NCBI RefSeq assembly: GCF_001638985.1
Contig: NW_017265166.1
Coordinates: 372,001-436,000, forward strand
Direction of reading: 5' to 3'
DNA from: Phycomyces blakesleeanus NRRL 1555(-)
Taxonomy: Eukaryota; Mucoromycota; Mucoromycetes; Mucorales; Phycomycetaceae
DNA length: 64,000 nt
Below, piece by piece: positions 33,693 to 64,000 of this stretch. Under the pieces are notes generated by a model, which searched no databases, was not told the origin of the DNA, and saw only the letters and a program-made list of their open reading frames with translations. The stretch's first letter is position 1. Each line of letters opens with the position of its first letter. Position numbers and translations under genes: made by a program.

Positions 33693-36011
33693 TCAGTAAA
33701 TTAGCATTACTTCTTGAACCATAAAGAAAGACAAAATGTTACCTTTAGAATGAGATGGAATCTTCAAACCAGCTTCGACTGCCTCAATATCATCACAGTC
33801 CTTTTGCAAAATATCGATTACAGTCTTCATTTCTTGCTGCATAGTCTCCAATATCTGTAGAAAATAAGTAAGTAAAGCCAGCCAAACGCATACTATGTTC
33901 GCCCATTACCTTTGCAATATTAAGCGCACCACCTTCATCAGCAGATTTCCAAACTTCATTATTACTGGCTTCTCTTGACTCTCTTTCTCTCTTAATTGCC
34001 TGGAGTTTGAATGAAAGCATGTTGATCTTTGCCTGCATATGCTCTACGCCATCTGTCTTTGATGATAATTTCTCCATTTGTTTCTGTAAAGTTTCTTCTG
34101 TCTTGTAAAGAGGTGTACCGCTGAACCGAAGCACTTGAGAGTAACGCATCAACTATAATAACATATTTTTTTACATATAGTCAGAATAACTAACCAACCA
34201 GCCCAACAATATCTTCCCTCTGCTTCTTTTCTTATTTTTTCTCTTCTGCGTGATCACTTCAAATGATTATTGAACCCATACCCTTAATAGTCGCTTTGTC
34301 AAATCCATACTGCGTCGCCAATGTGCTTGCATTTTAACCTTTGTGTTTAATACAAGTTGATGTTCTGCCATAGCCAATCTCTCCTGTGCCTCCTGTACTT
34401 TTTCTCGGTGCAAAGTAGTTTGTTCATTCTGGATATTGATTCGCTTCAAGAGATCATCAAATCCAACCACCAGTACCGGAACCATACTGCAAACATTAAA
34501 CTCATCAAAAAAACAATAAACCTTGGATAAAGTCTCTTAAATATATATTTACCATGATGGATCAGGGTTGTTTCTAATTGCCTCGTCCCACAACTTTTCA
34601 TCTTGGTTCGGAGGGCGTACATAGAAACGAATTTCATTAGGTGGAACTTGATTATAAAAATAATGCTAAATAGTTGAGAAGAACAAAAAAAGGACAAACA
34701 GAAGACAGGACTTGATTAGATAAACCACTCTTAGAATACTACTAACAACTTACTTTAAATCCACACAATGGTGATGAGGGATCCCACTTTGCTCTTATTA
34801 TCGCCAGCTCTTCCCATGTTTTTTCAGGCTGTGGTGCTGTAACTGCTTGCTGCTGCTGTTGCTGTTGTGGCTGCCCTACATAACCATCCAATTATCTTAT
34901 TGAGTTACCTTATAACCATATCTCGGCTTCCAGCACAGTATATGTATATGTATATTTACCAAAAAATGAAGTAGTTTGCTGTTGTGGTTTTGCGCCTACA
35001 TACATATATATACATACACACAGACACACACACAAAATATTGTGTCAATCAATCAATTGAACCAATAACATACCAGCATATTTCACAGTGCATATGCATA
35101 CCAAATGAAAATCCTCCTGTTGTAGGTGCTGTTGTGTTGTTAGCACCAAAACTAAAGCTTCCAATACCAGCTCCAGCTCCAGCTCCAACTCCACTAGTAT
35201 TAGTCGCAGTATTTCCAAAGCTAAATGAACCAGGTGCACTTGTTGCTGTTGTTGTGTTATTATTATTATTTGCTCCAAAATTAAATGTGCTTGTCGAATT
35301 TGTTGCGGCTGGGGCTCCAAAGCTAAATCCACCGGCAGCAGCTGATGCTGGTGTTGATATAGGTGTAGAATTGTTGCCAAACGAGAATCCACCGGCAGCT
35401 GGTGCTGGCGTAGAGTTGTTTCCAAACGAGAACCCTCCACCGGCAGCTGGTGCTGGTGTAGAGTTGTTTCCAAACGAGAATCCACCAGCAGCTGGTGCTG
35501 TTTGTGTAGAGTTGTTACCAAACGAGAATCCTCCACCGGCAGCTAAAATTTATATCTATGGTTAATTGGTGTATTCATAATGCTTTGCAGCTCAAAATTA
35601 AAAAATAAAAATACAAAATAAAGATAAAAATAAAATAGAATTGTACCTCCTGCAGGATTAGGAGCACTAGTAGTTGGGTTTGCGCCAAAGGATTGGTTTG
35701 CTGTTGTATTTAGTGAAGCACCGGTTCCAAATAAGGTACCTGCCGAAGAATGTCCCGGGGGATTAGCCTGAGGTGCTATAGATACAATAGGCAACATAAC
35801 GAATAGTCGAGTAAGATATATTGAAGTTTCATCCTTTTTATGATGTTCATTGTCGTTTTTTTTTTACAATGTCATGACGATGTGTTTGTGTTTGTATGTA
35901 TGCGGGTATGTTTGTGTGTTTGTGTTGGTGTGTGAATGCAAGCTCAAATTTACCTGCTCCTCCAAAGCCTGTAAACGACTGGGATGTTGTGGCTCCAAAG
36001 TTGAAGGCCAT
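33693..36011 (-). CDS. NUP54: Nucleoporin NUP54 (Nup57), FG-repeat
   Basis: Central-channel FG nucleoporin of the NUP62-NUP54-NUP58 complex. Nine minus-strand exons join in frame: 35954-36011, 35647-35775, 35102-35542, 34960-34995, 34754-34875, 34553-34665, 34282-34486, 33910-34152 and 33693-33854, giving 502 aa. The N-terminal third is an FG domain rich in FSFG cores with a repeated GGFSFGNNSTPAPA spacer (four tandem near-copies in exon 3). Poly-Gln follows, then the conserved WDPSSPLCGFKHYFYNQVPP block and a C-terminal coiled-coil alpha domain (RRSMDLTKRLLRLMRYSQVL). At the 3' end, reading through to a TGA at 33693 is assumed. An alternative last intron (donor after AAAG near 33743, acceptor ttcag near 33655) would give a slightly different C-terminus. 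Confidence 0.92.
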
Positions 36012-55490: not shown

Positions 55491-56358
55491 TGGTCTTCTA
55501 CATCAAAAACTTTATTAATGTCCCAAAAGAAAAGTTAATGAATAGGCCTCAATATAGCATTTTACGGAACTTATATAGGTTTTATGTAACAATAAGCTGT
55601 AGTACACTTCCAAAAACAGGTCTATTTTTAAGAAAAAGAATTATTTAATTAATAGCCCCAAAAGTGGAAGATAGTTCGAAGAAGTAGTATGTACCACACT
55701 TTTACTGAAATCACTTAATATAATATTGCAGCATATAAAGTAGTTTTTAACTCGGCTCAATAGGAGTCTGTGTTTGGTGCTCATATCTCTTAATATATCC
55801 AATCCTTCTTTCACGTACTAGGAACGAATTTGTAATACATCGAAAGAGAAATTCGGTATAATAAGAAATACGAGTACCAAACACAGCTTGTTAATTTCAG
55901 GAGAGATACTATTGGGGTTTCAAGGCTTTGTTATTGCCTTTTGCTTGCTACTTCATACTACTTTATATTGTTTCATTTTGCAATATAATTATTATATACT
56001 TTAATAAAATCAAAACACATTATATAATAATAACATAAGAGGTAAACTCTGCCGTTTACAATATAAATATCTTTCAGTTTAACAAGACTTACACTGAGAA
56101 GCAAGTAAAATATAATATAAGCGATTCTTAGAACGGCATTCTAGTAAAAGTGTGGTACATACTACTTCTTCGAACTATCTTCCACTTTTGGGGCTATTAA
56201 TTAAATAATTCTTTTTCTTAAAAATAGACCTGTTTTTGGAAGTGTACTACAGCTTATTGTTACATAAAACCTATATAAGTTCCGTAAAATGCTATATTGA
56301 GGCCTATTCATTAACTTTTCTTTTGGGACATTAATAAAGTTTTTGATGTAGAAGACCA
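55491..56358. mobile_element. Foldback element with 216-bp identical inverted arms
   Basis: Positions 55491-55706 are, as read here, an exact reverse complement of 56143-56358, around a 436-bp spacer (55707-56142). The arms begin tggtcttctacatcaaaaac and end taccacacttttact. The spacer holds a second, imperfect inverted repeat (ctgtgtttggtgctcat near 55768 against tacgagtaccaaacacag near 55880). No ORF is present. This fits a foldback or MITE-type element, or a locus able to give a hairpin RNA of more than 200 bp. Confidence 0.85.
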
Positions 56359-59300
56359 AAAACATTTATTTAGACAAACCACCGTGGATGAAAAATCTAA
56401 ATTTTCTATTTAAATTTACAAATTCAGTGATTTTACACAAACTGCTGTGGATACTCTTAGTATAGTGGCCCCTCAATAATTTCAAGGCTCTGGCGGCCCC
56501 CACTATTAAAAACAGGGCTAGACTTTCACGATTCTCGTTAAGTTCACTTTTACGATCATTTTTGGTCTTGAATCCTTAACGAGGAAGTATTTCAGTCAAT
56601 CAAGTTATGATAATTCTTATCTGTCAGCTCTTTTTTTTATTGTATATAGGGTTACTTCTAGCAAAACATGCTTTGACACACACACACTCTCTCTACCTTC
56701 ATCGGAAGATATATAATCTGCACTCGCTAATTTCTTTCTTCGATAATTTCAAGGCACTTGTGCTGCTATCCGACTTAACCATCTATGTTTTTAGATTCGT
56801 TTCAATTTCTTCTTTGAAACTTTTTATACTAGAAGCTTTGCATCCTTCTCCTCGGGGAGGGGGTATTGACCTATGTTAAGCTCTATGTATCTTTTCCCTA
56901 CTGCTAATAGTGTGTATAGAAAGGACAAATATAACAAGAAGTATGCTTATAACTATCGCGAAGAGTTGTTATAAGTCAGTGACGATGAAATAAATGTATA
57001 AACAAAAGTAAATAAGGGATTTGATCAATAAAATAAAGATAGATAAGAATTCTGTTTTATTATTGCTTCATCTGAAGACTTTTATATGTGAACAATATAT
57101 ACTACTTTGTTATAAAGCTCTATTAAAGCAGTACCAATGATGAAATACAATGCACAAGGGTATGCCTTGTGCAAGGGGATTGAAGGAAATCCTGCAAAGA
57201 GCGTCATACTTCTTTGCAGGATATTCGTGGTCTGAGCGGAACCAAAAGAACACACACAGTGTCACAAATCACTTAGTAATAACTACTTAGCAAACATCGT
57301 CTCTTAGTCATTCACCAATTTTATCATATATCTCAAAACATATAAATATCTCAAACATTCCAAAAAATAAACATTATCTTTATCTTCATATTCGTTCTAT
57401 TCCTATTCTCTTTTTGTGTGACTTCTCGAACATTACATGAGAAGGTCTATGTCACAAGATATCTAACTTTTGAACACTCCAAATTGATGCCTTTTGGAGT
57501 GTCTGGTTTATGTATTCAACTAAAAAAAATTGTACTTTTAGAAACAACTCGTATTTTTGCTATTGGGCATTTAAAGAGCTTATTGAAGTGGTGCAAGTTT
57601 CCCGAATTTCAGGGTTCTATGCTTTTTGAGAGTGAAAAAATCGGATATTTTGATCAAAATTCGAGTAATTGTAATATAATAAACCTCGAAGAGGTGGATC
57701 ACAATGTGTCTCACCAGGTTACTTAAAGCCAAAAAAAAAACATTGCTTATTTGATTCGATTTTTAATTTTCTATAATTGAAAAGCTATGATTACCATTGG
57801 TGTGCATTTGCATATGCTTGTAGAAATCTTAAAAAATATCATTTCCAGTACACTCATATTTAATCGACCATAGAAAAGGTTCATTTATACAAAGGCTCCG
57901 TGCTTCAAACTAAAATAGTCTCAAGCGAACCAAAGCTAGACTATGAGCCTCAAAGTAATAAGCGGAATCATACTATACAGTACTGTAGCGCATTATATTG
58001 TATTACAAAACAAAAGTTATAAATCAAAGCCTTTAATCCAACAGAGTATTATTTCTAGGTTATTCGTGCATCCAGTTGAGTTCGGTATACAAGCACAAAA
58101 TATCAAAAGCACTAGATCCTATAAATCGATAATTAGTAATCGATAGCGTCTTGCTCCCAAACAAACAAAACCTATACGTTCAGTAGCAGTAGATTGTCTC
58201 TTTGCTTTCATATTGTGCCGTCAGTCAGTCTGAGCAATAACAGAAAAAAATAGTAAATAAGCAGAGCCTTTAAAAGGTGATTTATATATATGTAATAGCC
58301 ATTTTACTAGCTTGATCTATCTGTGACCAGGCTAGCACAATTGCAAGCACCACTACTTTTTCATGGTGTATAATGTAACTTATATAAATAATTATAATTA
58401 TCGATAGAATGGTGTATATTTGAACACATATAAATGTAAAGTGTTTCAGGCAGTTGGGTTATTCTGTATTAATTTCTCAGTTGGATTATGATTGGTTTAT
58501 AAAGTAGTACAAACCAAGGTCGATTGACAAACACTAGGCTAGACCCTGTTCTTCTTTTTACTTTTATTTTACTCTAAGAACGATGCTTTAACTTGAGGTA
58601 CCAACGACTTTCAATAGTCAGGCTGTCAATCCCTTCATACTGAAGCACTGAAAGTACTTTTATTTCAAGAAAGTATTCCTACACTTTGTGTTTATTAACT
58701 CAAGACACTGGTGAAAAAGCTAGAAGAAAAATGGAAGTCTTTCACACGAAAGAAAAGAAAAGATATAAGCAGCAATTTTTTTCGGGGGTGCTTCTTAAAC
58801 TAATAAAGTCACAGCATGTGAAACAAACAAACAAGAAAACAAACAAATAAATATACACAAGACTTTAATTAAAGCTTTATAATCAACACAACTTTACACT
58901 TCTTTATTGTAGTTTAACGTCTAGCCGATTAATACTTTGTATATCAGTAGTACAGCTAAAATGAACACAGAGGCATATATAGTGTCTCGACAAGTGGCTG
59001 TTCAAAAGCATAAGCCTTGTTAACAGAATCACAACAGAAAGTAGAATAAAAAAGGGGATGGGGGTCCATAGCAACTGAATAATTTGACATGCATATAGTC
59101 CACCAATCGGAAGACATCATTTAAATGTTTTCATGCTAAAGTAAAGTCTGGACCACTATTGCTACTATGCTCCTCTAAGCCCCATGACACATGTGATGCT
59201 GCACGGACAGCACGGACCTTATGTGACATAAAAAGAACTAAAACAAAAAAAGAGGCAAAAGAAAAAAACAAAAAGTAAAACAAGTGCCTGCACAGCACGT

Positions 59301-60059
59301 CCTTCAGAATATAAGTGATACTTCTTTAAAACCCAAAACCCATATTTTAAGCATAGATATTAAATAAAGAAGTAAAATAGTAATAATATATACATGCTGT
59401 CAAGGCTAAAAGATAAAAGAAAACCGAAAAAGGAATAAGAAAAAAACCGAATTTTATAATATATTATCAAACTATCATAATAAAAATAATAAAAAAGAAC
59501 AGCAACTCATGATTGAGACGTCATGAGTTTTATAAAAAAAAAACACCTATCCAAACAGAACGCGTCAAAACAACTCTCTTCCACATACCATTAATACTTT
59601 ATACACTTCTTTACTGCTCTCTCACAAACTGCTTTAATCAACATAGACGTTAAAGACGAATCATGACCAATACAAATCCATTTTGCTAGTCAAATCTCAG
59701 GCTTTTATCATATGTAAAACAGTCAGTAGCAAGATATAAGACAACATGTCAAAGCCAGTACACAGCAAAAATGAAATACTGAGGTCCAACACTGGTTTGA
59801 CCATCAATCCATCCAAAGCCTATTCACACTCAGAAACAAGAGATAAACTGACAGGACTTACTATATTTCAAGGAGTATATGATATTCATCAAAGACACAC
59901 ATTGTGAAGATTATATTTGTCTAGTCTTTTGACAAACAAGGTCAACGATAAAAAAATAAGATCTCCATCCAGGCCTACAGGTATATAAAGGCTCGTTGAT
60001 TAATCATTCACTGTCTTTGATATTTCTGTAGAGACTTTTCAGGCAAAGTCAAGCAATCA
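56359..60059. other. Intergenic, repeat-rich, no clear gene
   Basis: About 3.7 kb without a credible coding region. The plus-strand ORFs at 57418-57726 and 57943-58146 lack splice partners, motifs and protein-like composition. Two adjacent perfect stem-loops lie at 57150-57221. From about 59960 degenerate units of the downstream array begin (ctccatccaggcctacaggt). Confidence 0.5.
57150..57221. other. Two adjacent stem-loops
   Basis: The first is gcacaagg-gtatg-ccttgtgc at 57152-57172 and the second cctgcaaag-(agcgtcatact)-tctttgcagg at 57193-57221. Both stems are 8-10 bp. Possible small structured RNA or remnant of a palindromic element; function unknown. Confidence 0.4.
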
Positions 60060-63000
60060 AGAACAGGTTTCCATCCAGGGCCACAGGTACACCAAGACTC
60101 GAGGAGCATATGCTCATTGTCTTTTGTATGCTTCTAGTGCCTTCCGTCCAGGTCAAGCATCAGGAATCCGATCAGAGTCCATGGTTATCAGGTATATCAA
60201 AACTCTATGAGCAGTTACTCACTTGTTTTTATATATTTGTAGTATCAAATTCCATCCAGGTCAAGCATCAAGGATCCGATCAGAGTCCACGGTTTTCAGG
60301 TATATCAAAACTCGATGAGCAGTTAGTCATTTGTTTTTGTATATTTGTACTATCCATTCCATCCAGGTCAAGCTTCAAGGTTCAAGTCAAGGTCCACGGT
60401 TTCAGGTATATCAAAACTCGATGGGCATTTACTCACTTGTTTTTGTATATTTCTAGTATCCATTCCATCCAGGTCAAGCTTCAAGGTTCAGGTCAAGGTC
60501 CACGGTTATCAGGTATATCAAAACTCGATGAGCAGATTCTCACTTGTTTTTGTATATTTATAGTATCCATTCCATCCAAGTCAAGGTTCAAGGTTCAGGT
60601 CAAGGTCCACCGTTTCAGGTATATCAAAACTCGATGGGCATTTACTCACTTGTTTTTGTATATTTGTAGTATCCATTCCATCCAGGTCAAGCATCAAGGA
60701 TCCGATCAGAGTCCACGGTTATCAGGTATATCACAACTCTATGAGCAGTTACTCATTTGTTTTTGTATATTTGTAGTATCCATTCCATCCAGGTCAAGCT
60801 TCAAGGTCCAGGTGAAGGTCCACGGTTTTCAGGTATATCAAAACTCGATGAGCAGTTACTCACTTGTTTTTGTATATTTGTAGTATCCAATCCATCCAGG
60901 AAAAGCATCAATGTTCCGATCTCCCAGCTATGGTCATAGGTATGACAAAACCATATGCGCATTTACTCACTAGCTTTTATCTATTACTAGTGTCAGCCAT
61001 CCAGGTCAAGTGTCAAGGACCTGATTTCCCGGCAATGGGTATAGGTATAGCAAATCGTTGTGGGAATATACTCACTAGTTATAATATATTTATAGTGTTC
61101 AGCTATCGATGTCAGGCGTCAAGGTTGCGATCTTCCAGCCAAGGTTATAGGTATAACAAAACATTATGGAAATATACTCACTGGTCTTAATATGTTTTTA
61201 GTGTTCAGTCATCCAGGTCAATCAACAGGATTCTGATCTCCCGTCCATGGTTATAGGTATAACAAAACGTTATGGCAATATACTCACTATTTTAAATATA
61301 TTTCTAGTGTTCCGCCAATCATGTCAAGCGTCCAGGTTCCCATCTCCCTGCCATGGTTATAGATGTAAAAAACATTAGGGACATATACTCACTAGCGTTA
61401 ATATATGTCTAGTGTTCAGTCATCCAGGTCAAGCATCTAGGTTCTGATCGCCAATCCATGGTTAAAGGTATAAAACAACATTATGGGCGTATACTCACTG
61501 TTTTTATTTAGTTCTAGTCTCCAGCCATCCAGGTCAAGCATCAAGGTTCTACTCGCCCGTCAATGGTGACAGGTATAACAAAATGTTATGGGCATATATT
61601 CACTAGTTTTAATATATCTCTAGTGTTGGGCCATCCAGGTCGAGCATCAAGGTTCCGATCGCCCGTCCATGGTTATAGGTATAAAAAGCATTCTCGGCCT
61701 ATACTCACTAGCTTTAATATTTTTCTAGTGTTCAGTTATCCAGGTCAAGCATCAAGGACCCTATCGCCCGCCCATGGTTATAAGTACAAAAAGCATTATG
61801 TGCATATACTCATTTTTTTAATCTAGTTCTAGTCTCCAGGTATCCAGGTCAAGCATCAAGATTCTGATCGCCCGTGCATGGTGATAGGTATAACAAAATG
61901 GTATGGGCATATATTCACTAGATTTAATATATTTCTAGTTTTCAGCCATCCAGGTCAAGCATCATGGTTCCGATCGCCCGTCAATGGTTATAGGTATGAA
62001 AAAACATTATGGGCCTATACTCACTAGTTTTTATATTTATTTCTGGTCTTCAGCCATCCGTGTCAAGCATCAAGGACCCGATCGCCCGTCCATGGTTATA
62101 GGTATAAAAAACATTATGGGTATACACTCACTAGTTTTATATATTTCTAGTGTTCAGTCGTCCAGGTCTAGCAACAAGGTTTTGATCGCCCGTCCATGGT
62201 GATAGGTATAACAAAGCGATATGGGCATATACTCTCTAGCTTTAATATACTTTTAGTGTTCAGTCATCCGGATGAAGCGTCAAGGACCCGATCGCACGTC
62301 CATGGTTATAGGTATAAAAAAAATTGGTATATACTCACTAGTTTTGATTTAGTTCTAGTCTCCAACCATCTGGTCAAACATTAAGGTTCTGATCTCCCAG
62401 CCAAGGTTATAGGTATAACAAAACGTTATGGGCATATACTCACTAGATTTAATATATGTCTAGTGTTCAGTCATCTAGGACAAGCATCAAGGGGCTGATA
62501 GCCCGTCTATAGTTATAGGTAAAAAAAAACATTATTGTCATTTACTCACTAGTTTTGATATTTATTTCTAGCCTCCAGCCATTCAGATCAAGCGTCAAGG
62601 ACCTGATCGCCCCTCCATGGTCATAAGTATAAAACAACATTATGGGCATATACTCACTAGCTGTAATATACTTCTTGTGTTCAGTCGTCCAGGTCAAGCA
62701 TCAAGGTTCTGGTCTCCCCGCCATGGTTATAGGTATAAAAAAACATTATGGGCATATACTCACTAGATTTAATATATCTCCAGTCTCCAGCTATCCAGGT
62801 CAAGCATCAAGATTCCGATCTCCCCGCCATGGGTATAGGTATAAAAAAACATTATGGGCAAATACTCACTAGATTTAATATATCTCCAGTCTCCAGCTAT
62901 CCAGGTCAAGCATCAAGATTCCGATCTCCCCGCCATGGGTATAGGTATAAAAAGCATTATGGGCATATACTCATTATTTTACTCTAGTTCTAGTCTCCGG

Positions 63001-64000
63001 CCATCCAGGTCAAGCATCAAGGTTCAAGTCAAGGTCAACGGATTCAGGTCGAGGTCCACGGTTTCAGGTATATCAAAACTCGATGAGCAGGTACTCACTT
63101 GTTTTTGTATATTTCTAGTATCTGTTCCATCCAGGTCAAGCTTCAAAGCCCACGTCAAAGTCCACGGTTTCAGGTATATCAAAACTCGATGAGCAATTAC
63201 TCACTTGTTTTTGTATATTTGTAGTATCTATTCCATCCAGGGTAAGCTTCAAGGTTCAGGTCAAGGTCAGCGGGTTCAGGTCGAGGTCCACGGTTTCAGG
63301 TATATCAAAACTCGATGAGCAGTTACTCACTTGTTTTTGTATATTTCTAGTATCCATTCCATCCAGGTCAAGCTTCAAGGTTCAAGTCAAGGTCCACGGT
63401 TTCAGGTATATCAAAACTCGATGAGCAGTTACTCAATTGTTTTTGTATATTTCTAGTATCCATTCCATCCAGGTCAAGCTTCAAGGCTCAGGTCAAGGTC
63501 AACGGTTTTCAGATCAAGGTCCACGGTTTCAGGTATATCAAAACTCTATGAGCAGTTACTCATTTGTTTTTGTATATTAGTTGTATCCATTCCATCCAGG
63601 TCAAGCTTCAAGGTCCAGGTCAAGGTCCACGGTTTTCAGGTATATCAAAACTCGATGAGCAGTTACTCACTTGTTTTTGTATATTTGTAGTATACAATCC
63701 ATCCAGGAAAAGCATCAATGTTCCGATCTCCCAGCTATGGTCATAGGTATAACAAAACCATATGCGCATTTACTCACTAGCTTTTATCTATTACTAGTGT
63801 CAGCAATCCAGGTCAAGTGTCAAGGACCCCATTTCCCGGCAATGGGTATAGGTATAACAAATCGTTGTGGGAATATACTCACTAGTTTTAATATATTTAT
63901 AATGTTTAGCCATCGATGTTAGGCGTCAAGGTTCCGATCTTCCAGCCATGGTTCTAGGTATATCAAAACAATAGGGAAATATACTCAATGGTTTTATTAT
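60060..64000. repeat. Tandem array of about 106-bp units, each with intron-like splice signals
   Basis: About 36 units run from 60.06 kb off the window end. Each unit has a 54-57-nt part containing ccatccaggtcaagc and ending in (t)cag or atag, followed by a 50-51-nt part that starts gtata, has an actcac branch-like site, a T-rich tract and ends (c/g)tag. A clear example is 60138-60191 (exon-like), 60192-60242 (intron-like), 60243-60299 (exon-like). There are two subfamilies: ctcgatgagcag units (60.1-60.9 and 63.0-63.7 kb) and cattatgggcat units (60.9-63.0 kb). Degenerate units extend back to about 59.96 kb. A long unspliced ORF (60110-60883) crosses seven units because the unit has few stops; that ORF is not called a gene here. 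Confidence 0.9.

What the first reader, a model, noticed from the sequence alone, without database searches (positions are those of the whole stretch)
60060..64000. Tandem array whose repeat unit looks like an exon plus a minimal intron
In most of the units inspected, the second half has every feature of the short introns seen in neighbouring genes: G|gtat donor, actcac branch-like site about 25 nt before the end, T-rich tract and tag acceptor, at 50-51 nt. The few mutated copies (for example gtac at the acceptor near 60350) are exceptions. Splicing the first six units (exon-like lengths 54, 57, 55, 56, 55, 56) gives one open frame with an 18-19-residue repeat (IPSRSSIKDPIRVHGFQ type). The seventh meets a TGA. 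Either this is a decaying gene grown by exon-intron unit duplication, a multi-exon noncoding RNA, or a satellite that captured splice signals.
Basis: partly seen in the sequence, partly recalled or inferred. Interest (0 to 1): 0.75.

Follow-up and report, generated by a model that had tools for sequence, protein, structure and literature searches.

The report
Satellite repeat that mimics introns
A 12.6-kb array of about 119 short DNA repeats in the fungus Phycomyces, part of a repeat block found in at least 33 places of its genome, has intron-like signals in most of its units, but those signals show no clear protection in recent copies, so it is likely a non-coding satellite that only looks like a many-exon gene and has likely misled gene annotation.

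Summary
The array runs from window 59875 to 8.5 kb past the window end (C36:431875-444509): 119 units of mostly 104-108 bp, with an evenly repeated head (62) and a diverged tail (51). It belongs to a >12-kb repeat block with at least 33 places in Phycomyces blakesleeanus NRRL 1555(-). Eight compared copies share tail units but hold 16-64 head units, as expected of a satellite changing by unequal exchange. The intron-like layout is real in the consensus, but the 50-nt 'introns' are shorter than all 14 introns mapped in two neighbouring genes, and no codon-position signal is seen. The Gs of the donor and acceptor change at about the background rate in head and tail. Between units, conservation is nevertheless highest at AG|GTATA, and in the head next at the branch-like TACTCA, which keeps a small chance for real splicing. 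Twelve annotated P. blakesleeanus 'hypothetical proteins' match array-derived peptides; an exact path for the one in this window needs introns of 34-67 nt. Best reading: a satellite whose founding unit carried splice-like motifs. No RNA data could be consulted.

The parts
57456..59874 (+). 5' region of the dispersed repeat block (no units)
   Evidence: 97.9-99.3% identical to seven other copies; 33 of 58 genome matches reach its array-side end
59746..59874 (+). short open stretch just before the first unit, used as the first exon of annotated models such as PHYBLDRAFT_71067; likely not a gene
   Evidence: tblastn 93% over 43 residues
59875..60086 (+). two diverged first units
   Evidence: cyclic profile
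60087..64000 (+). homogeneous head of the array; goes on past the window to C36:438710, then three transitional units, then the tail to C36:444509
60406..60455 (+). example of the 50-nt intron-like half of a unit (GTATAT ... TACTCAC ... TTTCTAG)
   Evidence: sequence, profile columns 1-51
62748..63638 (+). span of annotated gene model PHYBLDRAFT_74154 (partial hypothetical protein, 199 aa), likely a false prediction on the array
   Evidence: protein found; exact path with 6 introns of 34, 43, 51, 51, 67 and 48 nt

Best explanation
The region is the start of a tandem (satellite) array inside a dispersed repeat block of Phycomyces blakesleeanus, and its exon-plus-intron look is likely inherited from the founding unit rather than kept by splicing. 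Shown: units of about 106 bp, a homogeneous head in which units are most alike 36 and 26 units apart, an old diverged tail, and other copies of the block that share tail units but differ in head unit number. Inferred: the head grows and shrinks by unequal exchange or conversion while the tail, outside the exchange zone, decays mainly by changes at CpG; whole blocks spread by ectopic recombination, perhaps between chromosome ends. Predicted, untested: the array is non-coding, methylated and mostly silent.
For: Head identity 0.76 against tail 0.54; best partner of 18 of 62 head units is 36 units away and of 7 it is 26 away; head unit number 16-64 in eight copies with tail units in the same order; no excess protection in recent changes: tail splice-like columns 18 observed, 16.0 expected, head donor and acceptor Gs 21 against 19.3 and branch-like columns 62 against 56.9; no codon-position signal; tail stops as in column shuffles; only 19 of 51 tail units keep GT and AG; 'introns' shorter than the 14 mapped neighbours' introns; CpG-biased change, and passages of PMC11258239 place Phycomyces 5mC almost only in repeat-rich regions.
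Against: Between units the lowest-entropy windows are AGGTA/GTATA in head and tail and TACTC/ACTCA next in the head; base-matched column sets are as conserved in only 0.0017 (head) and 0.0247 (tail) of 20000 draws with donor, branch and acceptor taken together. In the head GT+AG together changed somewhat less than expected (27 against 34.0), T2 and A50 clearly so (6 against 14.7). Gene predictors called spliced proteins here in the annotation of the species. Transcription was not tested.
Confidence: 0.8

Rival explanations
1. The array would be transcribed and spliced into a noncoding RNA of many tiny exons, and selection would keep the head spliceable.
For: Donor-like and branch-like windows are the most conserved in the head; 182 of 226 head units keep GT and AG; T2 and A50 change less than expected in the head.
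Against: Donor and acceptor Gs and the branch-like columns change at background rate in the head and all splice-like columns do in the tail; layout unlike neighbouring introns in length and donor; tail mostly lacks intact pairs.
Confidence: 0.09
2. A protein-coding gene grown by duplication of an exon-intron unit, now decaying.
For: In the head one frame of the 48-nt exon-like half (columns 59-106) has a stop in only 10 of 103 distinct forms, against 29 and 96 in the other two frames; annotated models exist.
Against: No third-position excess, 60/41/46; tail stops equal column shuffles; all three frames of the spliced start are open; exon-like length in the tail is 1 mod 3 in 37 of 51 units, so the frame would turn at each junction; no Pfam match above cut-off in 5 array-derived proteins.
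Confidence: 0.04
3. The array would be a row of regularly spaced binding sites (core AG|GTATA) for a DNA-binding or chromatin factor, with a spacing near ten helical turns.
For: AG|GT is the most conserved part of the unit even in the tail (0 of 20000 base-matched sets as low); unit length is exactly 105 in 22 of 51 tail units.
Against: Core Gs are not protected recently in the head (G106 14 against 9.7, G1 12 against 9.7); no factor known to me; motif chosen after seeing the data.
Confidence: 0.05

Closest known systems
Satellite DNA with a homogenised core and diverged edges (alpha-satellite-like organisation; comparison recalled)
   Same: Head-to-tail units, block periodicity inside the head, old diverged units at the edge, varying copy number
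   Different: Here the array lies inside a dispersed block with a shared 5' region and shared tail; the unit consensus looks like an exon plus a short intron
Genes grown by exon-intron unit duplication, such as fibrillar collagens with 54-bp exons, or nebulin (recalled)
   Same: Repeated short exon-like halves separated by short intron-like halves
   Different: No protected reading frame, no constant phase in the tail, no codon-position signal
Introner elements (recalled)
   Same: Many similar intron-like sequences in one genome
   Different: The matches listed here cluster in arrays, each with an exon-like half; none was shown inside an ordinary gene
Subtelomeric repeat blocks of fungi (recalled)
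   Same: Multi-copy blocks with high identity, often near contig ends, beside a 74-bp tandem repeat
   Different: Several copies lie far inside contigs and no telomere repeat was seen beside them

Membership tests
satellite (tandem repeat) DNA | head-to-tail units of near-constant length | tested here: met
   119 units, head 104-108 bp in 58 of 62
satellite (tandem repeat) DNA | homogenisation and copy-number change between arrays | tested here: met
   36- and 26-unit periodicity; 16-64 head units in eight copies
satellite (tandem repeat) DNA | non-coding | tested here: met
   no codon-position signal; tail stops as in column shuffles; one head frame is mostly open, 93 of 103 distinct halves
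gene with tandemly duplicated exons | protected reading frame across exons | tested here: not met
gene with tandemly duplicated exons | transcribed and spliced | not testable with these tools
   no RNA data on hand
spliced noncoding RNA | splice positions kept more than other positions | tested here: inconclusive
   between units yes; recent changes no clear deficit
introner elements | dispersed as introns of different host genes | tested here: inconclusive
   all matches listed lie in array clusters, but 643 were counted, about 150 listed, and 40 of 92 candidates scored
subtelomeric repeat | next to chromosome ends | tested here: inconclusive
   16 of 28 places with known contig length lie within 30 kb of a contig end, at most about 7% of the genome; ends may be assembly breaks; TTAGGG x4 found once

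The most novel reading that the evidence does not exclude
The arrays are transcribed in some life stage and spliced into noncoding RNAs of dozens to over a hundred tiny exons, so that a satellite is kept splice-competent: AG|GTATA and the branch-like TACTCA are the most conserved windows of its head, and splicing would turn a repeat transcript into short exon RNA and a large pool of near-identical 50-nt introns.
Probability: 0.09. Interest if true: 0.85.

Novelty: new member of a known kind. Interest (0 to 1): 0.33.

Why it matters
It is a clear case of satellite DNA that imitates a many-exon gene well enough to have entered protein databases at least twelve times for one species, and it comes with a sequence test (between-unit against recent change at splice positions) that helps to separate mimicry from splicing. 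If splicing were shown after all, it would be an unusual satellite RNA. It also gives a marker repeat for repeat-rich, perhaps chromosome-end, regions of a model zygomycete.

Tried and rejected
Coding gene read through exon-like halves with the TAG acceptor (columns 50-51) and with a CAG acceptor (columns 57-58, a 48-nt half): one frame of the 48-nt half is mostly open in the head (stop in 10 of 103 distinct forms), but differences show no codon-position signal. Unspliced 35-residue reading of a 105-bp unit: stops in each frame of the tail. Rfam families at gathering score and tRNAs in the window: none. Pfam on 5 array-derived proteins: nothing above the curated cut-off. Cutting out other halves of the unit also gives low stop counts near the proposed cut, because the T-rich half holds most stops, so low stop counts are no evidence. 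Older copy on C4 (L047): collinear with this tail only in the last units and the 3' region (identity 0.77-0.85 per 250 bp from loc 17890 on), otherwise unit-to-unit matches, so it was not used for the constraint tests. A mobile-element reading was considered: by eye I saw no transposase or reverse transcriptase frame belonging to the block itself (no family search was made on these frames), and copies end at differing points, so I prefer ectopic exchange, unproven. Literature: nine searches on Phycomyces with tandem repeat, subtelomeric, repetitive, DNA methylation, centromere, satellite DNA and telomere, on Mucorales subtelomeric repeats, and two general ones listed no title about this repeat; of four papers passages were read, of the rest only listings.

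Full report
What is there. The window is C36:372001-436000 of a 53.5-Mb genome in 60 contigs. A transporter gene in the window is 99% identical to a Phycomyces blakesleeanus protein, and the gene model PHYBLDRAFT_74154 of strain NRRL 1555(-) lies on a contig of 452434 bases, the length of C36, so the organism is P. blakesleeanus NRRL 1555(-). Fetching the contig to its end and fitting a cyclic 106-column profile shows an array from C36:431875 (window 59875) to about 444509, 119 units. It has two diverged first units, a head of 62 units (mean pairwise identity 0.76), three transitional units and a tail, of which 51 units were analysed (0.54). Inside the head, the best partner of a unit is 36 units away in 18 of 62 cases and 26 away in 7, the trace of block duplications.

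It is one copy of many. The 5' region next to the array has 58 listed matches in the genome, 33 of which, this one included, reach the array-side end of the query; 32 of the 33 are 94-100% identical and one 85% (only 40 of 261 candidates were scored, so this is a lower bound). Eight copies (C36, C13, C22, C43, C52, C26, C11, and C7 at 1.82 Mb) were read in detail: the 5' regions of the other seven are 97.9-99.3% identical to this one over the shared part, tail units follow in the same order as far as the copies run on, with C13 and C22 ending early and C26 lacking a few units, and the number of head units varies from 16 to 64. Of the 33 places, contig length is known for 28; 16 of these lie within 30 kb of a contig end (positions, lengths), a zone of at most about 7% of the genome. 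Contig ends can be assembly breaks in repeats, so this is only suggestive; the telomere repeat TTAGGG x4 occurs once.

Does it splice? The layout G|GTAT - ACTYAC - TAG with 50-51 nt is in the consensus. It is not the usual layout of the introns I could map nearby: 3 in a transporter gene by exact protein match and 11 in a leucine-rich-repeat gene, taken as the path nearest to my marked boundaries that leaves one 475-residue frame, are 61-111 nt long, with donors GTAA 11, GTAT 2, GTAG 1. One of them has both a GTAT donor and an ATACTCAA stretch. Three tests of constraint were made. (a) Between units: in 226 head units of eight copies the lowest-entropy five-column windows are AGGTA, GTATA and GGTAT, then TACTC and ACTCA; base-matched column sets are as low in 0.0109 (GT, AG) and 0.0017 (with branch) of 20000 draws; for 51 tail units 0.0225 and 0.0247, while the branch alone gives 0.0365 and 0.2879. 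(b) Recent change among eight copies of the tail (185 variable of 4607 sites): splice-like columns 18 observed, 16.0 expected from base and CpG class. (c) Recent change in the head: 579 units from 22 copies or loci, 414 distinct, 367 edges of a minimum spanning forest with at most 8 differences each, 899 differences: GT+AG 27 against 34.0; G1 12 against 9.7; G51 9 against 9.6; T2 2 against 6.5; A50 4 against 8.2; branch-like columns 62 against 56.9. T2 and A50 change little, but so do several A and T columns elsewhere (A97, A105, A8, T87, T54); the two Gs without which splicing fails are not protected. Only 19 of 51 tail units keep both GT and AG.

Does it code? Probably not. Stop frequencies of the tail in the three plus-strand frames (0.051, 0.044, 0.044) match column-shuffled units (0.051, 0.049, 0.045). 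In the head one frame of the 48-nt half is mostly open (stop in 10 of 103 distinct forms, others 29 and 96), but differences between near-identical halves fall 60, 41 and 46 on codon positions 1, 2 and 3. Twelve database proteins match the unspliced array frame: eight NRRL 1555 models, three F4703DRAFT models recorded for P. blakesleeanus, and one named Helobdella robusta; one more F4703DRAFT model matched the spliced peptide. An exact path for the model in this window has introns of 34, 43, 51, 51, 67 and 48 nt with differing acceptors; exact paths for two other models (P0130 on C13, P0132 on C11) were not found with my script. I take these for ab initio predictions on a satellite; whether any has transcript support was not seen.

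How it works, as far as can be said. C>T and G>A dominate recent changes; rates at CpG are 0.203 in tails and 0.154 in the 5' region against 0.024-0.097 in other contexts. Passages of PMC11258239 state that 5mC in Phycomyces lies almost only in repeat-rich regions and is enriched at CG; passages of PMC13297926 say the same of repeats, and those of PMC7862722 list higher CG than non-CG methylation for this species. So the block has likely been methylated. The simplest account, inferred: an old array decayed, its 5' part was re-amplified and homogenised, the block was copied to many places (tail shared, head length free to vary), and the splice-like motifs of the founding unit came along. Tail units fall off slightly from the tail consensus with distance from the head (Spearman -0.36, p 0.008), as expected if the exchange zone lies in the head.

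What stays open. G106, the base before the donor-like GT, is kept in 92% of tail units where other consensus Gs are kept in at most 71%, yet it is not clearly protected recently (head 14 against 9.7; tail 1 against 2.9). I cannot explain this; a binding motif or an earlier phase of real splicing are possible. RNA data would settle it.

Novelty. A satellite with a splice-like consensus is a new member of a known kind. No listed title describes this repeat, but the library holds only open-licence papers, and repeat libraries of the Phycomyces genome projects were not seen.

Noticed in passing
window 55500-56358: About 860 bp with inverted ends of 207-216 bp and copies on C6, C20 and C2: looks like a small terminal-inverted-repeat element just upstream of the block.
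   Followed up: partly
flanks of several copies and the C36 and C22 contig ends (L009, L032, L037, L043): A 74-bp tandem repeat lies upstream of some copies and downstream of others; it may mark chromosome-end regions.
   Followed up: no
protein P0124, Helobdella robusta HELRODRAFT_184199: A 'leech' protein from a 19-kb contig matches the array; 40 residues are 100% identical to window 61114-61233. Likely Phycomyces DNA in the leech assembly.
   Followed up: partly
L041 and L031/L030 (copies on C11 and C13): Beside these copies lie a 1030-residue frame that looks like a LINE reverse transcriptase and a frame that looks like a Tc1/mariner transposase (labels by eye, no family search).
   Followed up: no
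unit columns 105-106 in the array tail: A105 and G106 are the best-kept pair of the unit in the tail (0.94 and 0.92), better than the donor-like G1 (0.71), the reverse of what splicing would need.
   Followed up: partly
window 35362-35531: A 48-bp tandem repeat of 3.6 copies inside an open frame.
   Followed up: no
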